Source of the DNA: Massilia sp. Leaf139
Lineage (GTDB): Bacteria > Pseudomonadota > Gammaproteobacteria > Burkholderiales > Burkholderiaceae_D
Assembly (NCBI RefSeq): GCF_001424165.1
Contig: NZ_LMOJ01000001.1
Coordinates: 27,194-91,193, forward strand
Length of the DNA stretch: 64,000 bases
Direction: 5' to 3'
The notes below the pieces were generated by a model. The model worked only from the letters and a program-made list of their open reading frames with translations. It was not told the origin of the DNA and made no database searches. This document shows, in pieces, positions 18,159 through 24,110 of the stretch. A program made the position numbers and the translations under genes. Each line of letters begins with the position of its first letter. Positions within the stretch are counted from its first letter, which is position 1.

Positions 18159-18467
18159 TCAAGTTGCGGGAAACGTGTTCAGACGATGGACGCCGGCCGC
18201 GATCCAGACCACGGCGGCCAGGATCGAGAGCGGGGTCAGGAACAGCAGCGGCACGCCCAGTTCCGGACGCAGCGCGGCGATCGGGACGCAGAGCGCGTGT
18301 ATGGCGACGGGCAGCAGCAGGCGCCGCGCGGCGTAGCGGTTGATGCGCGGCGTGGCTTGCGGGGAGCCGTAATCCACGAAATTGAGCAACTGGCGGTAGG
18401 GAAAGAAGTAGAGCACGAGCGCGATGCCGGACAGCAGCCCGGTCATGAGCAGAAAGATGTCCGACAT
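18159..18467 (-). CDS. Small membrane protein of unknown function
   Basis: A 102-residue protein with about three hydrophobic helices (residues ~4-22, ~48-66, ~70-92) joined by a basic stretch INRYAARR. Not assigned to a family. The frame is well behaved, starts MSDIFLLMTG, and sits 16 bp upstream of the GFA gene on the same strand, so the two are probably co-transcribed. Inner-membrane location is inferred from hydropathy. Confidence 0.65.
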   Translation of the reverse strand: MSDIFLLMTGLLSGIALVLYFFPYRQLLNFVDYGSPQATPRINRYAARRLLLPVAIHALCVPIAALRPELGVPLLFLTPLSILAAVVWIAAGVHRLNTFPAT

Positions 18468-18494: not shown

Positions 18495-18707
18495 TCAGGT
18501 ATTCATTTCCGCGTAGGCGACGCCCAGCTCGCGCTCGACTGCGGACTGCAACATGACCGCGTGCGACTTCAGGAAATGAAAGACGTATTCCAGGCTCTCG
18601 CCGTCGTGATCGTGCTCCGGCATGGGATTGGGATCGTAGCGCGCGGCGGCGGCGAGCGCGCGCACCTCGTCTTCGGTGTGGCGATAAACCCAGCCATCGG
18701 GTGTCAG
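18495..18707 (-). CDS. Small overlapping reading frame with no standard start
   Basis: Reading leftward from 18707 there is an open frame of about 70 codons whose product looks protein-like: TPDGWVYRHTEDEVRALAAA, then DPNPMPEHDHDGESLEYVF, then an amphipathic helix ending AYAEMNT. No ATG, GTG or TTG lies in frame upstream before a stop; the only candidate at the expected place is a CTG that overlaps the upstream stop as CTGA, the same geometry as an ATGA coupling. It could be a CTG-started gene, a frameshifted tail of the HepT-like gene, or a shorter protein from an internal GTG. Function unknown. Confidence 0.45.
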   Translation of the reverse strand: MTPDGWVYRHTEDEVRALAAAARYDPNPMPEHDHDGESLEYVFHFLKSHAVMLQSAVERELGVAYAEMNT

Positions 18708-19141
18708 TCCGCCTGTGGCGACGGCGGCAGCGTCGCCGCCCCGGCCAGCAGCGCCTGGCTGTAGGCGCCGAAATCATCGAGCCCGCGCTTGATGATGGTG
18801 ACCAGGGCCGGCAGCGGCGCGGCCTGGTGATCCCATTCGGCGCGGCAGAATTCGCCGGTGCGTTTCAGGTCTTCGGCCAGGGTGGCGTCGATCCAGCCGT
18901 TGTCGGCCAGGATGCTGATGACCTCGCGCTCGTTGAAGGGCTCGCCCAGGTCGGCCATGGCGATCACGTAATCGCCCATCTCGACCGCCGCTTCCCAGGC
19001 GCGGATCACGTTCAGGGTCGCCGCGTCCTGGCGCGTGAGGTCGCCCACGAAAGTCGTCGGATCCTTCTCGTATTCTTCGCGGGCGCGGCGGCAGCAGCGT
19101 TCGATGATGCCGGTCTTGCCGACCAATACGGTGTCGTCCAT
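18704..19141 (-). CDS. Orphan HepT-like (HEPN/DUF86) protein
   Basis: A 145-residue all-alpha protein that follows the HepT toxin pattern: IIERCCRRAREEY, the LTRQDAATLNVIRAWEAAVEM helix region, PFNEREVISILADNGWI, and a C-terminal IIKRGLDDFGAYSQAL. HepT toxins are HEPN RNases with RNxxVHxY. Here the corresponding stretch is RAEWDHQA: the R-x4-H core survives but the Asn and the Tyr are gone. In the studied Shewanella pair that Tyr is the residue AMPylated by the antitoxin MntA, and no MntA-like nucleotidyltransferase is in the window. GAGGAG precedes the ATG at 19141, 10 bp after the antiporter stop. Confidence 0.7.
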   Translation of the reverse strand: MDDTVLVGKTGIIERCCRRAREEYEKDPTTFVGDLTRQDAATLNVIRAWEAAVEMGDYVIAMADLGEPFNEREVISILADNGWIDATLAEDLKRTGEFCRAEWDHQAAPLPALVTIIKRGLDDFGAYSQALLAGAATLPPSPQAD

Positions 19142-19151
19142 GCTCACTCCT

Positions 19152-20390
19152 CTAGATCAGAAACAGGATTGCGGCGACGATGGTCGGGCCCAGGGCGCCG
19201 CCCAGCAGGCCCAGGGCGCCGATCGATTCGTCGTTGAAGCCATTGCGCAGCAGGGCGGCGCCGGCGGGATTCGGGGCGTTGGCAATCACGGTCAGGCCGC
19301 CGCCGGCGACCGCGCCCGCCACCAGCATGTACTTGGCGTGCTCGGACAAGCCCGTGATCAGCGAACCGAGATAGGTCAGTGCCGCATTGTCGGTGATCGC
19401 GGTCAGGCCCAGCGCACCGAAGAACAGGGCGGTGGGGCTGAGGCTGGAAATGATCGGCTGCAGCCACCATTGCTGCATCCCGCCCAGCACCACGAGGCCG
19501 GCCAGGAAGAAGCCGACCAATAAACCTTCTTTCAGGATCAGGGGATCCTGGTGGCGTCCGTAAGCCTGGGTAAAGCCGAGGAAGAGCAGGAACAGGCCGA
19601 GGAAGAGCACCGGGTGGTGCGCCAGCAGCACGACGGCCGCCAGGAAGGCGAGGTGGATGACCGACACTTTCAGGGGCACCGGCGTGCGTTCCTCGGCGGC
19701 GGCCGGCGCCAGGTGCTTGCGCAGCAGCAGGGTGACGACGCTGGCGTTGATCAGCACAGCCAGGGCGGCGCGCCAGCCGAAGTGAGTCAGCATGTAGGCG
19801 CTGTCCCAGCCCCAGGTGGACGCCACCATCAGCACCGGCGGCGCGGCATAGGAGGTGAGGGTGCCGCCGATCGAGACGTTCACGAACAGCACGCCGAGCG
19901 CGCCGTATTTCAGCGCTTCCGGAATGCCGGGGCGGAACACCTGAGGCGCGAGCATCAGCGCGGCCAGGGTCATCGCCGCCGGCTCCGTGATCAGCGAGCC
20001 GGACAAGGGCACCAGGGCCAGCCCCAGCCAGGCCAGTGCGACTTCGGTGCGCACGGGCACCAGCCTGGCCACCGTGCCCAGCAGGACGCGCACGGCGTCC
20101 AGGATCGGGCGCGAGGCCGCGATCACCATCACCACGAACACGAACAGCGGCTCGGTGAACTGGCGCGATTCGGCATAGTCGACGGCCGCGCCCGGCCCGG
20201 CGACGAAGGCCATCGTCACGATCAGGACGAAGGCCCAGAAACCGAACACGACCTCGACTTCGCCGAGCAGGTGGAACAGGCCTTCATGGCGCGGGTGGCG
20301 GTCGGCCAGGATCTCGAAACCCTTGGCGGCGAAGGTGTGGAGGAGGGCGCAGGCGAAGAGGGCGGCGCCGACCAATTGTATTGTGGTCAT
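19152..20390 (-). CDS. Putative Na+/H+ antiporter (PF07399-type)
   Basis: A 412-residue polytopic membrane protein with about eleven hydrophobic helices, matching the putative Na+/H+ antiporter family PF07399. Conserved-looking polar segments inside helices include GSLITEPAAMTLAALML, NVSIGGTLTSYAAPPVL and AITDNAALTYLGSL, plus NAPNPAGAALL near the C-terminus, reminiscent of the ion-transporter superfamily's discontinuous helices. The ATG at 20390 (MTTIQLVGAAL) is preferred to a TTG at 20435. It is divergent from nhaA and precedes the HepT-like gene by 10 bp. Transport is inferred from the family. Confidence 0.85.
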   Translation of the reverse strand: MTTIQLVGAALFACALLHTFAAKGFEILADRHPRHEGLFHLLGEVEVVFGFWAFVLIVTMAFVAGPGAAVDYAESRQFTEPLFVFVVMVIAASRPILDAVRVLLGTVARLVPVRTEVALAWLGLALVPLSGSLITEPAAMTLAALMLAPQVFRPGIPEALKYGALGVLFVNVSIGGTLTSYAAPPVLMVASTWGWDSAYMLTHFGWRAALAVLINASVVTLLLRKHLAPAAAEERTPVPLKVSVIHLAFLAAVVLLAHHPVLFLGLFLLFLGFTQAYGRHQDPLILKEGLLVGFFLAGLVVLGGMQQWWLQPIISSLSPTALFFGALGLTAITDNAALTYLGSLITGLSEHAKYMLVAGAVAGGGLTVIANAPNPAGAALLRNGFNDESIGALGLLGGALGPTIVAAILFLI

Positions 20391-20871
20391 GGGCGCGATC
20401 CGGTGCGGAAGAGGGAAGCGGGCATTGTCAGGCAAATAATGAATGAAGCGCCATTATTTCACCTTTTGATGCGGGCCGGACGCGATCCTGTGGTTTCTCG
20501 ACGGACAAGTGAATCGTTGGCGTTCTGCCGAGCGAGGTATAATTTTGCCAGGGTGATCGCATCGTACAGGTGCGACAGGATGCGCGATGGTCGGGCCGCC
20601 ACGCGGTTACCGTTACGTCCATCGCCATGATCATCCGATTCCCTGCCGTTTTGCCGCTACCGGCAATCTTCCCGCCCTCTCATTTTCATACCCGTCGTGG
20701 CGACATCGCCGCGCATGCCGGATCGGCGCTGGCAATCGATTCCTCCTGAGAGGCGGCAAGCGTGTCCACGACACGTATTTCTTCCCTAGCAGACAAAAGC
20801 CTTCGCGCCGCGTATGGGCTTTCCACAAATCCAATCCGATCCGCCATACAGGTCGGCCACGGAGTAAAAAA
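20391..20871 (+). promoter_or_regulatory. Divergent control region and long structured nhaA leader
   Basis: No gene is supported in these 481 bp. A TATAAT at 20538-20543, with a weaker TTGGCG at 20517, would start transcription near 20550, leaving about 320 nt before the nhaA start. The leader can fold: ATCGCATC at 20556-20563 pairs with GATG..CGAT at 20579-20588; CGTGTC-CAC-GACACG forms a hairpin near 20763-20780; AAAGCC pairs with GGGCTTT near 20800-20825. GGAG at 20861 is the nhaA ribosome site. Long leaders before nhaA are known hosts of ion-sensing riboswitches; I could not match a specific consensus. Confidence 0.45.
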
Positions 20872-22089
20872 TTGCGCATCGAAAAGCGACTTTCACAATC
20901 ATTCAAGCAATTCACCGAGTCGGGCAAGGCGGGCGGCATCGTGCTCATCGTCTGCACGCTCATCTCGCTGCTGGTCGCCAATTCGCCCCTGGGGGAGGGT
21001 TATCTCGGTTTCTGGCGCCAGTACGTGGCCGGCCTGTCCATCGAGCATTGGGTCAACGACGCGCTGATGGCCATCTTCTTCCTGCTGATCGGGCTGGAGC
21101 TCGAGCGCGAACTGCAGAACGGCGAACTGTCGGACGTGAGAAACGCCATGCTGCCGATCCTGGCCGCTGCCGGCGGTATTGCCGTGCCCGCGCTGATCCA
21201 CTTCCTGCTCAATGGGGGAACGCCGACCCAGGCCGGCATTGGTATTCCGATGGCGACCGACATCGCGTTTGCGCTCGGTGTGCTGGCCTTGCTCGGAAGC
21301 AGGGTGCCGGCATCGCTGAAGATTTTCCTGACGGCGCTGGCCGTGATGGACGACCTCGGTGCGATCGTTGTCATCGCCGTGTTCTATACGGCCGAATTGT
21401 CGTTCCTGTATCTCATGGGCGCCCTTGCGGTCTTTGCGGCGCTGCTGGCCATGAACCGCATACTGCGCGTGATGGCGCTGTGGCCTTATCTGCTGGGCGG
21501 CGCGCTGATGTGGTTCCTGATGCTCAAGTCGGGCGTGCACGCCACGATCGCCGGCGTGCTGCTGGCCTTCACGATCCCGTATTCGAGCATCGAGGACGAT
21601 GCCACGTCGCCCTCGCACCGGCTCGAACACATGCTGCACAAGCCGGTCGCCTTCCTGATCCTGCCGGTGTTTGCCCTGGCCAATACGGGAATCGTGATCG
21701 GCACGGGCTGGGCCGGAGAGTTGATGTCGGCGAACAGCCTCGGTATCCTGCTGGGGCTGGTCGTAGGCAAGCCGGTCGGCATCTTCCTGTTCAGCTTTGG
21801 CGCCGTCCTGCTCGGTATCTGCCGCCTGCCGCTCGACCTTGCTTGGCGCCATGTGCTTGGCGCCGGCCTGCTTGGCGGCATCGGGTTTACCATGTCCATC
21901 TTCATCACCAACCTGGCCTACACAGGCCAGGCGGAGGTGATCAATGCATCGAAGATGGCGATTCTCCTGGGATCGCTGGTTGCGGGAATCATCGGTTTTA
22001 CCTGGCTCAAATTCCTCGGTACACCGCTGGCCTCGGATCCGGATACCGATACGATGGACTTCGACGATACCCCGCTGCGCGGCCGCTGA
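20872..22089 (+). CDS. nhaA: Na+/H+ antiporter NhaA
   Basis: A 405-residue inner-membrane antiporter that expels Na+ (or Li+) in exchange for protons. Family hallmarks are clear: ESGKAGGIVLIVCT at the N-terminus, MAIFFLLIGLELERELQNGEL, the PMATDIAFALGVLALLG helix, and the paired transport aspartates in LAVMDDLGAIVVI (Asp160-Asp161, equivalent to E. coli 163/164). The start is TTG at 20872, seven bases after GGAG; no ATG gives the normal family length. It heads an operon with the K+ uptake genes: ktrB begins 1 bp after its stop. Confidence 0.95.
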   Translation: MRIEKRLSQSFKQFTESGKAGGIVLIVCTLISLLVANSPLGEGYLGFWRQYVAGLSIEHWVNDALMAIFFLLIGLELERELQNGELSDVRNAMLPILAAAGGIAVPALIHFLLNGGTPTQAGIGIPMATDIAFALGVLALLGSRVPASLKIFLTALAVMDDLGAIVVIAVFYTAELSFLYLMGALAVFAALLAMNRILRVMALWPYLLGGALMWFLMLKSGVHATIAGVLLAFTIPYSSIEDDATSPSHRLEHMLHKPVAFLILPVFALANTGIVIGTGWAGELMSANSLGILLGLVVGKPVGIFLFSFGAVLLGICRLPLDLAWRHVLGAGLLGGIGFTMSIFITNLAYTGQAEVINASKMAILLGSLVAGIIGFTWLKFLGTPLASDPDTDTMDFDDTPLRGR

Positions 22090-22090
22090 C

Positions 22091-23419
22091 ATGAATGCGA
22101 TTCTCCATCCCGCCAGGGCGGTGACCCTGGCCTTCCTGGCGGTGATCATGATCGGCACGCTGCTCCTGATGCTGCCGATGGCGCGTGCGGGCGGGAGCAA
22201 TGCGCCCCTGATGGTGGCCTTCTTCACCTCGGTGTCGGCGGTGTGCGTCACCGGCATGGTGACGGTCGATACGGGTACCTACTGGTCGACCTTCGGCCAG
22301 GCGACCATCATGGGGCTGTTTCAACTGGGCGGCTTCGGCATGATGACGGCGGCGACCCTGCTCGGATTGATGGTGAACCGCTCGCCGGGCCTGCGTACGC
22401 GCCTGCTGACGCAGACCGAAACGCGTTCGCTCGCGCTGGGCGATGTACGCAGCGTGGCGAAAGTGGTGTTGGCAATGACCTTGCTGTGCCAGTGCATCAT
22501 CGCGCTGGCACTCATGTTGAGGTTGCGCCTCGGGCATGGCCTCGACTGGCGTGAAGCGGCATGGTCGGGACTGTTCCATGCGGTTTCCGCATTCAACAAC
22601 GCCGGGTTTTCGATCCATGCCGACAGCCTGATGCGCTACGCCGGAGATGCATTCATTCTGCTTCCCATCCTGATGGGCTTCATTCTCGGCGGTATTGGCT
22701 TCCCGGTATTGCATGACTTGCGCCAGCGGCTGAACGATCCGCGCCACTGGTCGCTGCACACCAAGCTCACGCTGGTGGGCACGCTGGTTTTGCTGCTGGG
22801 CGGTTTCTGTGCGGTGCTGCTGTTCGAATGGGACAACGCAGGGACGCTGGGCCCCATGGGCGTGGGCGAGAAACTGCTCAACAGTTTCTTCATATCGGCC
22901 GCGGCCCGTACTTCGGGCTTCAACACGATCGACATTGCCGCCTTGACGCAGGAAACCTGGGCCTTGCATTACCTGCTCATGTTCATCGGCGGCGGCAGCG
23001 CCAGCACCGCCGGCGGCGTCAAGGTGGCGACGGTCGCCGTCCTGTTCCTGCTCGTGCTGGCCGAAGCAAAAGGGCACAGCGACACCGAAGCGTTCGGACG
23101 GCGCGTGGGGGCATCAGCGCAGCGGCAGGCAATCACGGTGCTCGTCATTGCCAGCGTGCTGGTGGTGCTCGGTACCCTGGCCTTGCTGCGCATGACCGAT
23201 TTTCCGACCGATCGGATCATCTTCGAGGTCATCGCCGCCTTCAGTACCGCCGGCCTGTCGACTGGCATCACCGCCCAATTGCCGGTGGCCGGCCAGCTGG
23301 TGCTGTTGCTGTTAATGTTTTTTGGCAGGGTAGGAACCATTACGCTGGCCACCTCGCTGGTCATGGGCGAGCGGCGCATGCCTTACCGTTTTCCGGAGGA
23401 GCATCCAATTGTTGGGTAG
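22091..23419 (+). CDS. ktrB: KtrB/TrkH-type potassium channel subunit
   Basis: A 442-residue membrane subunit of a Trk/Ktr K+ uptake system. The four pore loops are visible in order: SVSAVCVTGM, AVSAFNNAGFS, AAARTSGFNTID and AAFSTAGLSTG, each holding the filter glycine. Length and lack of an N-terminal extra helix pair fit KtrB rather than E. coli TrkH. It begins 1 bp after the nhaA stop, so translation is probably coupled; it overlaps ktrA. Pairing Na+ export with K+ import in one transcript fits a salt or pH response (inference). Confidence 0.93.
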   Translation: MNAILHPARAVTLAFLAVIMIGTLLLMLPMARAGGSNAPLMVAFFTSVSAVCVTGMVTVDTGTYWSTFGQATIMGLFQLGGFGMMTAATLLGLMVNRSPGLRTRLLTQTETRSLALGDVRSVAKVVLAMTLLCQCIIALALMLRLRLGHGLDWREAAWSGLFHAVSAFNNAGFSIHADSLMRYAGDAFILLPILMGFILGGIGFPVLHDLRQRLNDPRHWSLHTKLTLVGTLVLLLGGFCAVLLFEWDNAGTLGPMGVGEKLLNSFFISAAARTSGFNTIDIAALTQETWALHYLLMFIGGGSASTAGGVKVATVAVLFLLVLAEAKGHSDTEAFGRRVGASAQRQAITVLVIASVLVVLGTLALLRMTDFPTDRIIFEVIAAFSTAGLSTGITAQLPVAGQLVLLLLMFFGRVGTITLATSLVMGERRMPYRFPEEHPIVG

Positions 23420-24110
23420 AATTTTCACAGAGCAGTTCGCGTTTTCGAGCAGCGACAGCGTGGTCGTGATCGGCCTGGGGCGCTTCGGCGGCGCTGTCGC
23501 CCAGTCGCTGGTGCGCCTTGGTCACGACGTCATGGGGATCGACCGCAAGGAAGACCTCGTACAGGTATGGGGCGATCGCCTGACCCATGCGGTGCAAGCC
23601 GATTCGACCAACGAGAACGTGATGCTGCAGCTCGGCGTTGCCGACTTCTCGCATGCGATTGTCGCCATCGGGTCGGATCTGGCTGCCAGCCTGATGACGC
23701 TGATGGTGCTGACCGAGCTGGGAATCAAGGATATCTGGGTCAAGGCCATGTCGCCCGAGCATGGACAAATCGCCCAGCGCATTGGCGCCCACCACATCAT
23801 CTACCCCGAAGCGCACATGGGCGAACGCGTGGCCCACCTGATCACGGGACGGATGATCGATTTCATCGAATTCGAAGATGGATTCGCGATCGCAAAGATC
23901 CATGCGCCGGCCGAGACCCATGACAAAACCCTGGCCGAAGCCCATGTGCGTTCGCGTTTCGGCGTGACGATCGTCGGCGTCAAGCGTGCCAACCAGGATT
24001 TCCAGCATGCATTGCCCGAGACCCGCATCCGTCCCGCGGATCTGCTCATCGTTTCAGGGCCGACCAGGAAGATCGAGGAGTTCGCAGCAGGGAAGCGCAA
24101 GGACAGATAG
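23409..24110 (+). CDS. ktrA: KtrA/TrkA-type RCK regulatory subunit
   Basis: A 233-residue cytosolic gating subunit for the KtrB channel. The N-terminal RCK_N Rossmann domain shows the nucleotide-binding motif VVVIGLGRFGGAVAQ (Gly at ~22-28) and the acidic end of strand two (GIDRKED); the C-terminal RCK_C (TrkA_C) domain ends in RIRPADLLIVSG. These bind ATP/ADP or NAD(H) and form an octameric ring. The start is TTG at 23409, overlapping the ktrB stop by 11 bp and preceded by GGAGGAG; there is no ATG at this point. Last gene of the nhaA-ktrB-ktrA operon. Confidence 0.94.
   Translation: MLGRIFTEQFAFSSSDSVVVIGLGRFGGAVAQSLVRLGHDVMGIDRKEDLVQVWGDRLTHAVQADSTNENVMLQLGVADFSHAIVAIGSDLAASLMTLMVLTELGIKDIWVKAMSPEHGQIAQRIGAHHIIYPEAHMGERVAHLITGRMIDFIEFEDGFAIAKIHAPAETHDKTLAEAHVRSRFGVTIVGVKRANQDFQHALPETRIRPADLLIVSGPTRKIEEFAAGKRKDR

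What the first reader, a model, noticed from the sequence alone, without database searches (positions are those of the whole stretch)
18495..19141. Orphan HepT-like HEPN protein missing the AMPylated tyrosine, followed by an overlapping small frame
The 145-residue protein follows the HepT/DUF86 helical pattern. It keeps the HEPN R-x4-H core (RAEWDH) but has lost the Asn after Arg and the Tyr after His of RNxxVHxY. That Tyr is the residue AMPylated by MntA in the characterised system, and no MntA is present, so partner and target residue are lost together. In its place an overlapping frame of about 70 codons begins at a CTGA overlap. It may be a repurposed HEPN with a new small partner, embedded in an ion-transport operon.
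Basis: partly seen in the sequence, partly recalled or inferred. Interest (0 to 1): 0.6.

Follow-up and report, generated by a model that had tools for sequence, protein, structure and literature searches.

The report
Dead HepT toxin kept across Massilia
A gene that databases label as an RNA-cutting bacterial toxin has lost its cutting residues and its antidote gene, yet is kept as an ordinary chromosomal gene throughout a soil-bacterium genus, so it probably does a new, non-toxic job; the small neighbouring reading frame is only a broken piece of another gene.

Summary
The protein (complement 18704-19141, 145 aa) is a HepT relative: its model matches Shewanella HepT (6m6u: Z 20.9, rmsd 1.1). 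60 of 62 congeneric genomes carry it, one copy each; named relatives are mostly Massilia.

Against paired HepTs (GFRNIAVHDYQ) the lineage reads EFCR-AEWD[Y/H/L]Q: catalytic Arg and Asn replaced, one residue deleted, catalytic His now Trp. The window's His sits in the AMPylated-Tyr column, still Tyr in 40 of 49 lineage sequences.

MntA lies beside 28 of 29 relatives outside this lineage, 0 of 48 inside it; none was found in 62 congeneric genomes.

The lineage is one clade (100/100) under purifying selection (dN/dS about 0.27). It usually follows a Na+/H+ antiporter gene, but persists without relaxed selection where that gene is lost.

The small frame is the C-terminal third of an unrelated ~200-aa protein, not found in the 12 other congeneric genomes searched. 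It is not a partner.

Verdict: domesticated, very probably non-catalytic HepT; protein-binding regulation is the likeliest job, but inferred.

The parts
18704..19141 (-). hepT* : orphan HepT-like protein without the RNase motif, 145 aa (ATG at 19141; in-frame GTG at 19147)
   Evidence: PF01934 36.5 bits, NF047751 72.5 bits, AlphaFold pLDDT 88.8, best PDB match HepT 6m6u Z 20.9 rmsd 1.1
18824..18853 (-). remodelled former active-site loop E97-Q106 (EFCRAEWDHQ) in place of GFRNIAVHDYQ
   Evidence: alignments; FCRAEWD[Y/H/L]Q in 47 of 49 sequences, FCRAEFDYQ and FCRADWDYQ once each; one further genome (L034) reads FCRSEWDYQ
19147..19151 (-). ribosome-binding-site-like AGGAG directly after the antiporter stop codon, 5 nt before the ATG
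   Evidence: sequence; SD-like words within 18 nt upstream of a crudely chosen start in 37 of 48 relatives
19152..20435 (-). putative Na+/H+ antiporter (PF07399), upstream gene of the two-gene unit
   Evidence: 613.6 bits; found in 41 of 49 loci examined, same strand upstream with gaps of 8-138 nt in the 39 measured
18495..18707 (-). 'small frame': C-terminal remnant of an unrelated ~200-aa protein family, read from a CTG that is not a usual start; usable start only GTG at 18665 (56 aa)
   Evidence: 49% identity to the C-terminus of a 303-aa frame, aligned with a 201-aa Synechocystis plasmid protein; not at this place in the sister genomes compared
18159..18467 (-). 102-aa hypothetical gene downstream, shared with sister genome G266, where it follows hepT* directly
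   Evidence: 57% identity in L080; DNA homology in L080 and L101

Best explanation
This is a former type VII toxin, HepT, that lost its MntA partner and its RNase active site in the common ancestor of one Burkholderiales lineage (mostly Massilia by the titles of named relatives) and has since been kept as a chromosomal gene, usually as the second cistron behind a Na+/H+ antiporter. Shown by computation: HepT sequence and predicted fold, replacement of catalytic Arg/Asn/His, no MntA found in the genus, one origin with a long stem, purifying selection, near-universal presence, and no relaxation of that selection where the antiporter is missing. Inferred: the protein still folds as the HEPN helix bundle and presumably dimerises, but instead of cutting RNA it uses the rebuilt loop (EFCRAEWD-Q-PLPAL) and the adjoining K118-R119 of the last helix to bind a protein (or small-molecule) partner, in the way that MtlR, of another HEPN family with many inactive members, is found in complex with HPr. 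Binding a protein rather than RNA is preferred because the lineage became strongly acidic. The partner is not identified; it is not the small frame and need not be the antiporter.
For: Fold. Loss of catalytic residues: R to C in 100%, N to R in 100%, H to W in 98% of 49 lineage rows, against R 100%, N 96%, H 100% of 24 outside rows; in the Shewanella homologue R97G and H102A each abolished toxicity, a double mutant pointed to N98, and Y104A had no effect on toxicity (PMC4621449 passages). No MntA: 0 of 48 lineage loci against 28 of 29 outside loci; 0 of 62 congeneric genomes. Fixed gene: 60 of 62. Single origin 100/100 with a stem of 2.54 changes per column. Selection: median dN/dS 0.278 against antiporter 0.309 and imuA 0.272 in the same 266 pairs. 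After antiporter loss: 0.148 within the 7-member clade against 0.170 in ten antiporter-bearing relatives. Acidic shift: median net charge -10 (pI 4.6) against -2 (pI 6.0).
Against: No function was measured. Anantharaman et al. report that HEPN proteins lacking the motif were still effective as toxins in a genome-scale screen (PMC3710099 passages), so loss of the motif does not prove harmlessness. NCBI's toxin model still scores it above its cut-off. The acidic shift is indirect evidence on ligand type. Dimerisation was not modelled. Two congeneric genomes lack the gene (G151, G207), so it is not essential. The tree program warned of long branches among the outside rows. The lower dN/dS in the antiporter-less clade is not special to hepT*: imuA falls too (0.139 on 7 pairs against 0.211 on 41).
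Confidence: 0.6

Rival explanations
1. A dedicated regulator of the Na+/H+ antiporter: co-translated with it and controlling its activity or mRNA, as MtlR is tied to the mannitol operon.
For: The antiporter gene is in 41 of 49 loci examined, same strand and directly upstream with gaps of 8-62 nt in 38 of the 39 measured. All 49 congeneric genomes with the antiporter have hepT*; both genomes without hepT* lack the antiporter.
Against: 11 congeneric genomes keep hepT* without an antiporter match (one, G006, is a fragmentary, 83% complete genome). The 7 antiporter-less named loci with intact flanks form one clade (100/79), in which hepT* is not under relaxed selection (0.148 against 0.170). Genome G130 of the neighbouring genus has the antiporter but no hepT* beside it or elsewhere. 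The antiporter occurs in 181 of 294 family genomes, while only 35 of the 294 have any match to hepT*.
Confidence: 0.15
2. A decoy that protects against incoming HepT toxins: the dead subunit pairs with an active HepT and spoils the shared active site (anti-addiction).
For: Fold and much of the family core kept while catalysis is lost; no MntA of this type found in 62 congeneric genomes.
Against: The lineage diverged far from the toxins it would have to pair with (stem 2.54 changes per column), changed charge strongly, and the loop that replaces the active site is rigidly conserved, which a pure decoy would not need. Four congeneric genomes carry further HepT-like genes of over 89 bits beside hepT* (five matches), so such genes are not kept out altogether.
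Confidence: 0.1
3. Still an RNase with a shifted or alternative active site, held in check by the small frame or by something else.
For: R100, E102, D104, K118 and R119 are (nearly) invariant polar residues near the old site; alternative sites are proposed for some HEPN families (PMC3710099).
Against: No His among the invariant columns; the His at 105 is Tyr or Leu in 42 of 49 sequences; the small frame is a gene remnant absent from the congeners searched; a free-standing toxin without antitoxin in 60 of 62 genomes is implausible.
Confidence: 0.1
4. A decaying toxin relic with no function.
For: Partner and catalytic residues lost; two congeneric genomes lack it.
Against: dN/dS about 0.27, like its neighbours; 56 invariant positions in 12 diverse members; 60 of 62 genomes.
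Confidence: 0.02

Closest known systems
HepT of the MntA-HepT (HEPN-MNT, type VII) toxin-antitoxin system, Shewanella oneidensis SO_3166 (5yep, 6m6u)
   Same: Fold over about 130 residues (Z 20.9, rmsd 1.1); sequence similarity over residues 6-131 (phmmer 1.4e-13); conserved family core (TRQDAA-LN--RA-EAA)
   Different: Rx4HxY replaced by CR-AEWD(Y/H/L); no MntA; fixed chromosomal locus; strongly acidic; second gene behind an antiporter
MtlR, HEPN-family repressor of the mannitol operon, solved with HPr (6kcr)
   Same: HEPN family in which a large fraction lost the RNase motif and which sits in a transport operon (PMC3710099 passages); the MtlR-HPr entry appears in the structure comparison at Z 7.9
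   Different: Different HEPN family; the structural score is in the range where unrelated helical folds also appear; different operon; no partner of hepT* is known, and its transporter link is dispensable
HI0074-type HEPN substrate-binding subunits and HEPN domains fused to nucleotidyltransferases
   Same: HEPN fold (1jog Z 11.8); fused HEPN domains typically lack the catalytic residues (PMC3710099)
   Different: Those work with a nucleotidyltransferase; none matching MntA was found in 62 congeneric genomes

Membership tests
Type VII MntA-HepT toxin-antitoxin, HepT toxin | HEPN/HepT fold and family profile | tested here: met
Type VII MntA-HepT toxin-antitoxin, HepT toxin | Rx4HxY active-site and AMPylation motif | tested here: not met
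   R to C, N to R, one deletion, H to W lineage-wide
Type VII MntA-HepT toxin-antitoxin, HepT toxin | Adjacent MntA nucleotidyltransferase gene | tested here: not met
   0 of 48 lineage loci; 28 of 29 outside loci have it; 0 of 62 congeneric genomes
Type VII MntA-HepT toxin-antitoxin, HepT toxin | RNase activity and toxicity | not testable with these tools
   homologous R97G/H102A mutants are non-toxic (PMC4621449)
Inactive HEPN regulators of the MtlR type (works like) | HEPN fold with RNase motif lost | tested here: met
Inactive HEPN regulators of the MtlR type (works like) | Operon with the transport system it regulates | tested here: inconclusive
   antiporter in 41 of 49 loci, but lost in one clade without relaxed selection on hepT*
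Inactive HEPN regulators of the MtlR type (works like) | Binds a regulatory protein | not testable with these tools
   only indirect: acidic shift

The most novel reading that the evidence does not exclude
The lineage turned a toxin into its own antidote: a dead HepT kept by nearly the whole genus that pairs with, and so disarms, active HepT toxins arriving on mobile DNA, which would explain why MntA-HepT modules of this type were not found in these genomes.
Probability: 0.1. Interest if true: 0.75.

Novelty: new variant of a known kind. Interest (0 to 1): 0.42.

Why it matters
It is a single-origin case of a toxin-antitoxin toxin losing both partner and active site and becoming a near-universal gene of a genus, with about 60 genomes to compare and a natural experiment (one clade that lost the antiporter). 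It also shows a false alarm in annotation: NCBI's model scores the window protein above its cut-off for a HepT RNase toxin, so a probably non-toxic gene is likely listed as a toxin.

Tried and rejected
Rejected: R-x4-H core (misalignment); small frame as partner; antiporter as obligate partner; pseudogene.

Led nowhere: PADLOC gave no model for the protein or the small frame; Pfam gave nothing for the two small-frame relatives scanned; phages gave no match for the small-frame family and plasmids one. Plasmid relatives of the HEPN protein (18 records) are all below 60% identity; 12 of the 15 rows listed name a nucleotidyltransferase under the match. Literature: the rows listed by searches (most lists were capped) hold no paper titled on an orphan or inactivated HepT in Massilia; only this open-licence library was searched.

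Weak points of method: the regex for MntA missed true cases, corrected by reading upstream frames and by tblastn with two MntA queries. The gene caller is crude and calls antisense frames; only neighbours checked by tblastn were used. A 0.9 length filter dropped the antiporters of L117 and L123, corrected; the same filter left these two out of the comparison set (ten of the twelve other rows of that 19-row clade). The tree used 24 of 29 outside loci: L066, L161 and L164 were left out by me as broken or partial, L067 and L071 fell below the length limit; the root is at the midpoint. dN/dS is a counting method on pairs with dS 0.15-1.5. One search had no positive control in the same search.

Full report
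1. What is there. On the minus strand, 19141-18704 encodes 145 aa (a GTG two codons upstream would give 147). The sequence reads antiporter stop TAG, then AGGAG, five bases, ATG, so the gene directly follows, and is probably translated with, the PF07399 Na+/H+ antiporter gene 20435-19152. Pfam HepT-like matches at 36.5 bits, but only over profile positions 1-82 of 120, missing the catalytic third; NCBIfam's HepT toxin model matches at 72.5 bits, above its cut-off of 60. AlphaFold (12 sequences) gives pLDDT 88.8, pTM 0.83, with a mean of 70 in the block of residues 101-110. The nearest solved structures are Shewanella HepT: 6m6u Z 20.9, rmsd 1.1 over 130 residues; then 7ae6 Z 17.7 and YutE Z 17.5 (Foldseek).

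2. The motif. Relatives outside this lineage read GFRNIAVHDYQ; the lineage reads EFCR-AEWD[Y/H/L]Q. MAFFT on eight sequences, MAFFT L-INS-i on 49 lineage and 24 outside sequences and phmmer against the Shewanella HepT chains agree that Trp103 lies in the catalytic-His column and residue 105 in the Tyr column; in the Y104A mutant chain (6m6w) the mutated residue aligns with the window's His. The Arg column holds Cys99 or Phe98, depending on the one-residue gap. In the Tyr column the 49 sequences have Tyr 40, His 7, Leu 2 (39 Y by the pattern, plus one FCRADWDYQ row that the pattern missed). In Shewanella HepT, R97G or H102A abolished toxicity, a double mutant pointed to N98, and Y104A had no effect on toxicity (PMC4621449); Y104 receives three AMPs from MntA (PMC7641770).

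3. The partner. Of 29 loci with HepT relatives outside the lineage, 28 have an MntA match (E 0.01, either of two queries), some of them broken (L066, L067, L161); L164 has none. Of 48 lineage loci none has one in the DNA held, up to 5 kb each side. A search of the 62 genomes of the genus with one MntA found none at E 0.01 (no positive control in that call). The HepT profile finds this gene in 60 of 62 genomes, and six other matches above its cut-off: five of over 89 bits in four genomes (G291, G022 twice, G332, G012) and a short one in G331; a further weak match in G011 is below the cut-off. So hepT* is the only HepT-like gene found in the own genome and in most others, but not in all.

4. Distribution and history. 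60 of 62 congeneric genomes have one copy; the two without are G151 and G207; in G207 the imuAB region holds neither hepT* nor the antiporter. In the family sample 35 of 294 genomes match: 25 of this genus, 4 of the neighbouring genus g20, and 6 weaker ones in other genera. Of these six, four (G245, G072, G171, G128) carry the RNxxxH-type motif (RD in G072) with MntA, G134 carries two such pairs, one with its MntA broken over frames, and G224 is a truncated pair. In the order sample 39 of 300 match; 18 of these matches were fetched, and G028, G037 (two) and G038. All that reach the motif keep the Arg and His; one (L161, from G618) has Asp for the Tyr. The 48 named lineage loci are mostly Massilia, with Telluria, one Herbaspirillum label and some bins. 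The tree puts all 49 lineage rows on one side of a branch with 100/100 support and length 2.54, longer than any branch within the lineage (at most 0.58); 0 of 500 label shuffles are as low; the program warned of long branches among the outside rows. Since then the sequence is held: dN/dS medians 0.278 (hepT*), 0.309 (antiporter), 0.272 (imuA) over the same 266 pairs from 24 loci.

5. Neighbourhood. The usual order is imuA-imuB (divergent; imuA named from recall, imuB has the IMS domain), antiporter, hepT*, and further down DUF2760 and an Hsp70-like gene. Of 30 neighbourhoods mapped, 27 show imuA, 23 the antiporter, and 20 show DUF2760 in the DNA held, about 0.1 to 10 kb behind hepT*. In the window DUF2760 lies about 9 kb downstream of hepT*. 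NhaA and TrkH between the antiporter and imuA were seen only in the window. The antiporter is present in 49 of 62 congeneric genomes, all 49 with hepT*; 11 of the 13 without it still have hepT*. Of 49 loci in the named set and the window, 8 show no antiporter; one (L132) is a contig end, and the other seven form one clade (100/79), so one loss explains them. hepT* within that clade has dN/dS 0.148 (20 pairs), against 0.170 (45 pairs) in ten antiporter-bearing relatives, and keeps the loop except for the Tyr-column His in one; imuA falls likewise (0.139 on 7 pairs, 0.211 on 41), so the point is only that selection on hepT* did not relax. The antiporter is a frequent but dispensable companion.

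6. What changed in the protein. Fifteen positions differ consistently between the two groups (a sixteenth, the start Met, is an artefact of trimming); ten lie in or beside the old active-site loop (95, 96, 97, 99, 100, the deletion, 102, 103, 108, 112), and K118-R119 are invariant only in the lineage. Median net charge over the first 136 residues is -10 in the lineage and -2 outside. A rebuilt, rigid loop in an acidic protein suggests a new binding site, more likely for a protein than for RNA. That is inference. MtlR, of another HEPN family in which a large fraction lost the motif (PMC3710099) and which was solved with HPr (6kcr, Z 7.9), is the working analogue, not a shown relative.

7. The small frame. 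A family-wide search with its 70 residues matched 3 of 195 genomes: this one and two in other genera, where the match is the C-terminal end of frames of 303 and 211 aa; none of the 12 other congeneric genomes in that sample matched, nor, convincingly, did any of the 28 other loci (best E 0.33). A 201-aa hypothetical protein on a Synechocystis plasmid is a further full-length relative, and the alignment shows the window frame lacks the first two thirds. BLAST homology with sister genomes stops 8 to 22 bases before the end of hepT*; in L080/L103 (one genome) and L101/L167 (one genome) it resumes inside the 102-aa gene, in the latter after about 1.9 kb of other DNA; in L079 other DNA follows. The piece therefore probably arrived by a recombination that also replaced the last codons of hepT*. 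Its codon composition is still gene-like (GC3 0.79-0.82), so it is recent or still translated from the GTG at 18665; nothing found links it to hepT*.

8. Verdict. Known fold, known kind of event (HEPN inactivation; Anantharaman et al. give 83% motif conservation for the group that includes this family), but a distinct, genus-wide variant with a new near-invariant motif and no partner yet. Interest 0.42.

Noticed in passing
window 20587-24110: NhaA, TrkH and TrkA genes sit divergently between the antiporter and imuAB; NhaA and TrkH were seen in this place only in the window among 30 mapped neighbourhoods, so they look like a recent insertion of cation-transport genes.
   Followed up: partly
downstream of hepT* in L072-L100 and the window: The stretch between hepT* and the DUF2760-Hsp70 pair varies from about 0.1 to 10 kb between species (20 of 30 neighbourhoods show the pair or its first gene), as if it were an insertion hot spot.
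   Followed up: partly
L161 (G618) and L067 (G224): Broken MntA-HepT pairs: in L161 the AMPylated Tyr column is Asp and the MntA match covers only its C-terminal half; in L067 both frames are short.
   Followed up: no
L174 2306-2911; L051 1352-2263; L052 1078-1713: An unnamed protein family of about 200 aa (WP_028946470.1 and relatives) in a cyanobacterial plasmid and two Burkholderiales genomes; the two Burkholderiales members had no Pfam match.
   Followed up: partly
window 18704-19141: NCBI's HepT toxin model accepts this protein above its cut-off although the active site is gone, so automatic annotation probably lists a toxin that is not one.
   Followed up: partly
G337:C1:4836639-4837867: The antiporter gene of one congeneric genome is found as two separate matches, so it may be broken there while hepT* behind it is intact.
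   Followed up: no
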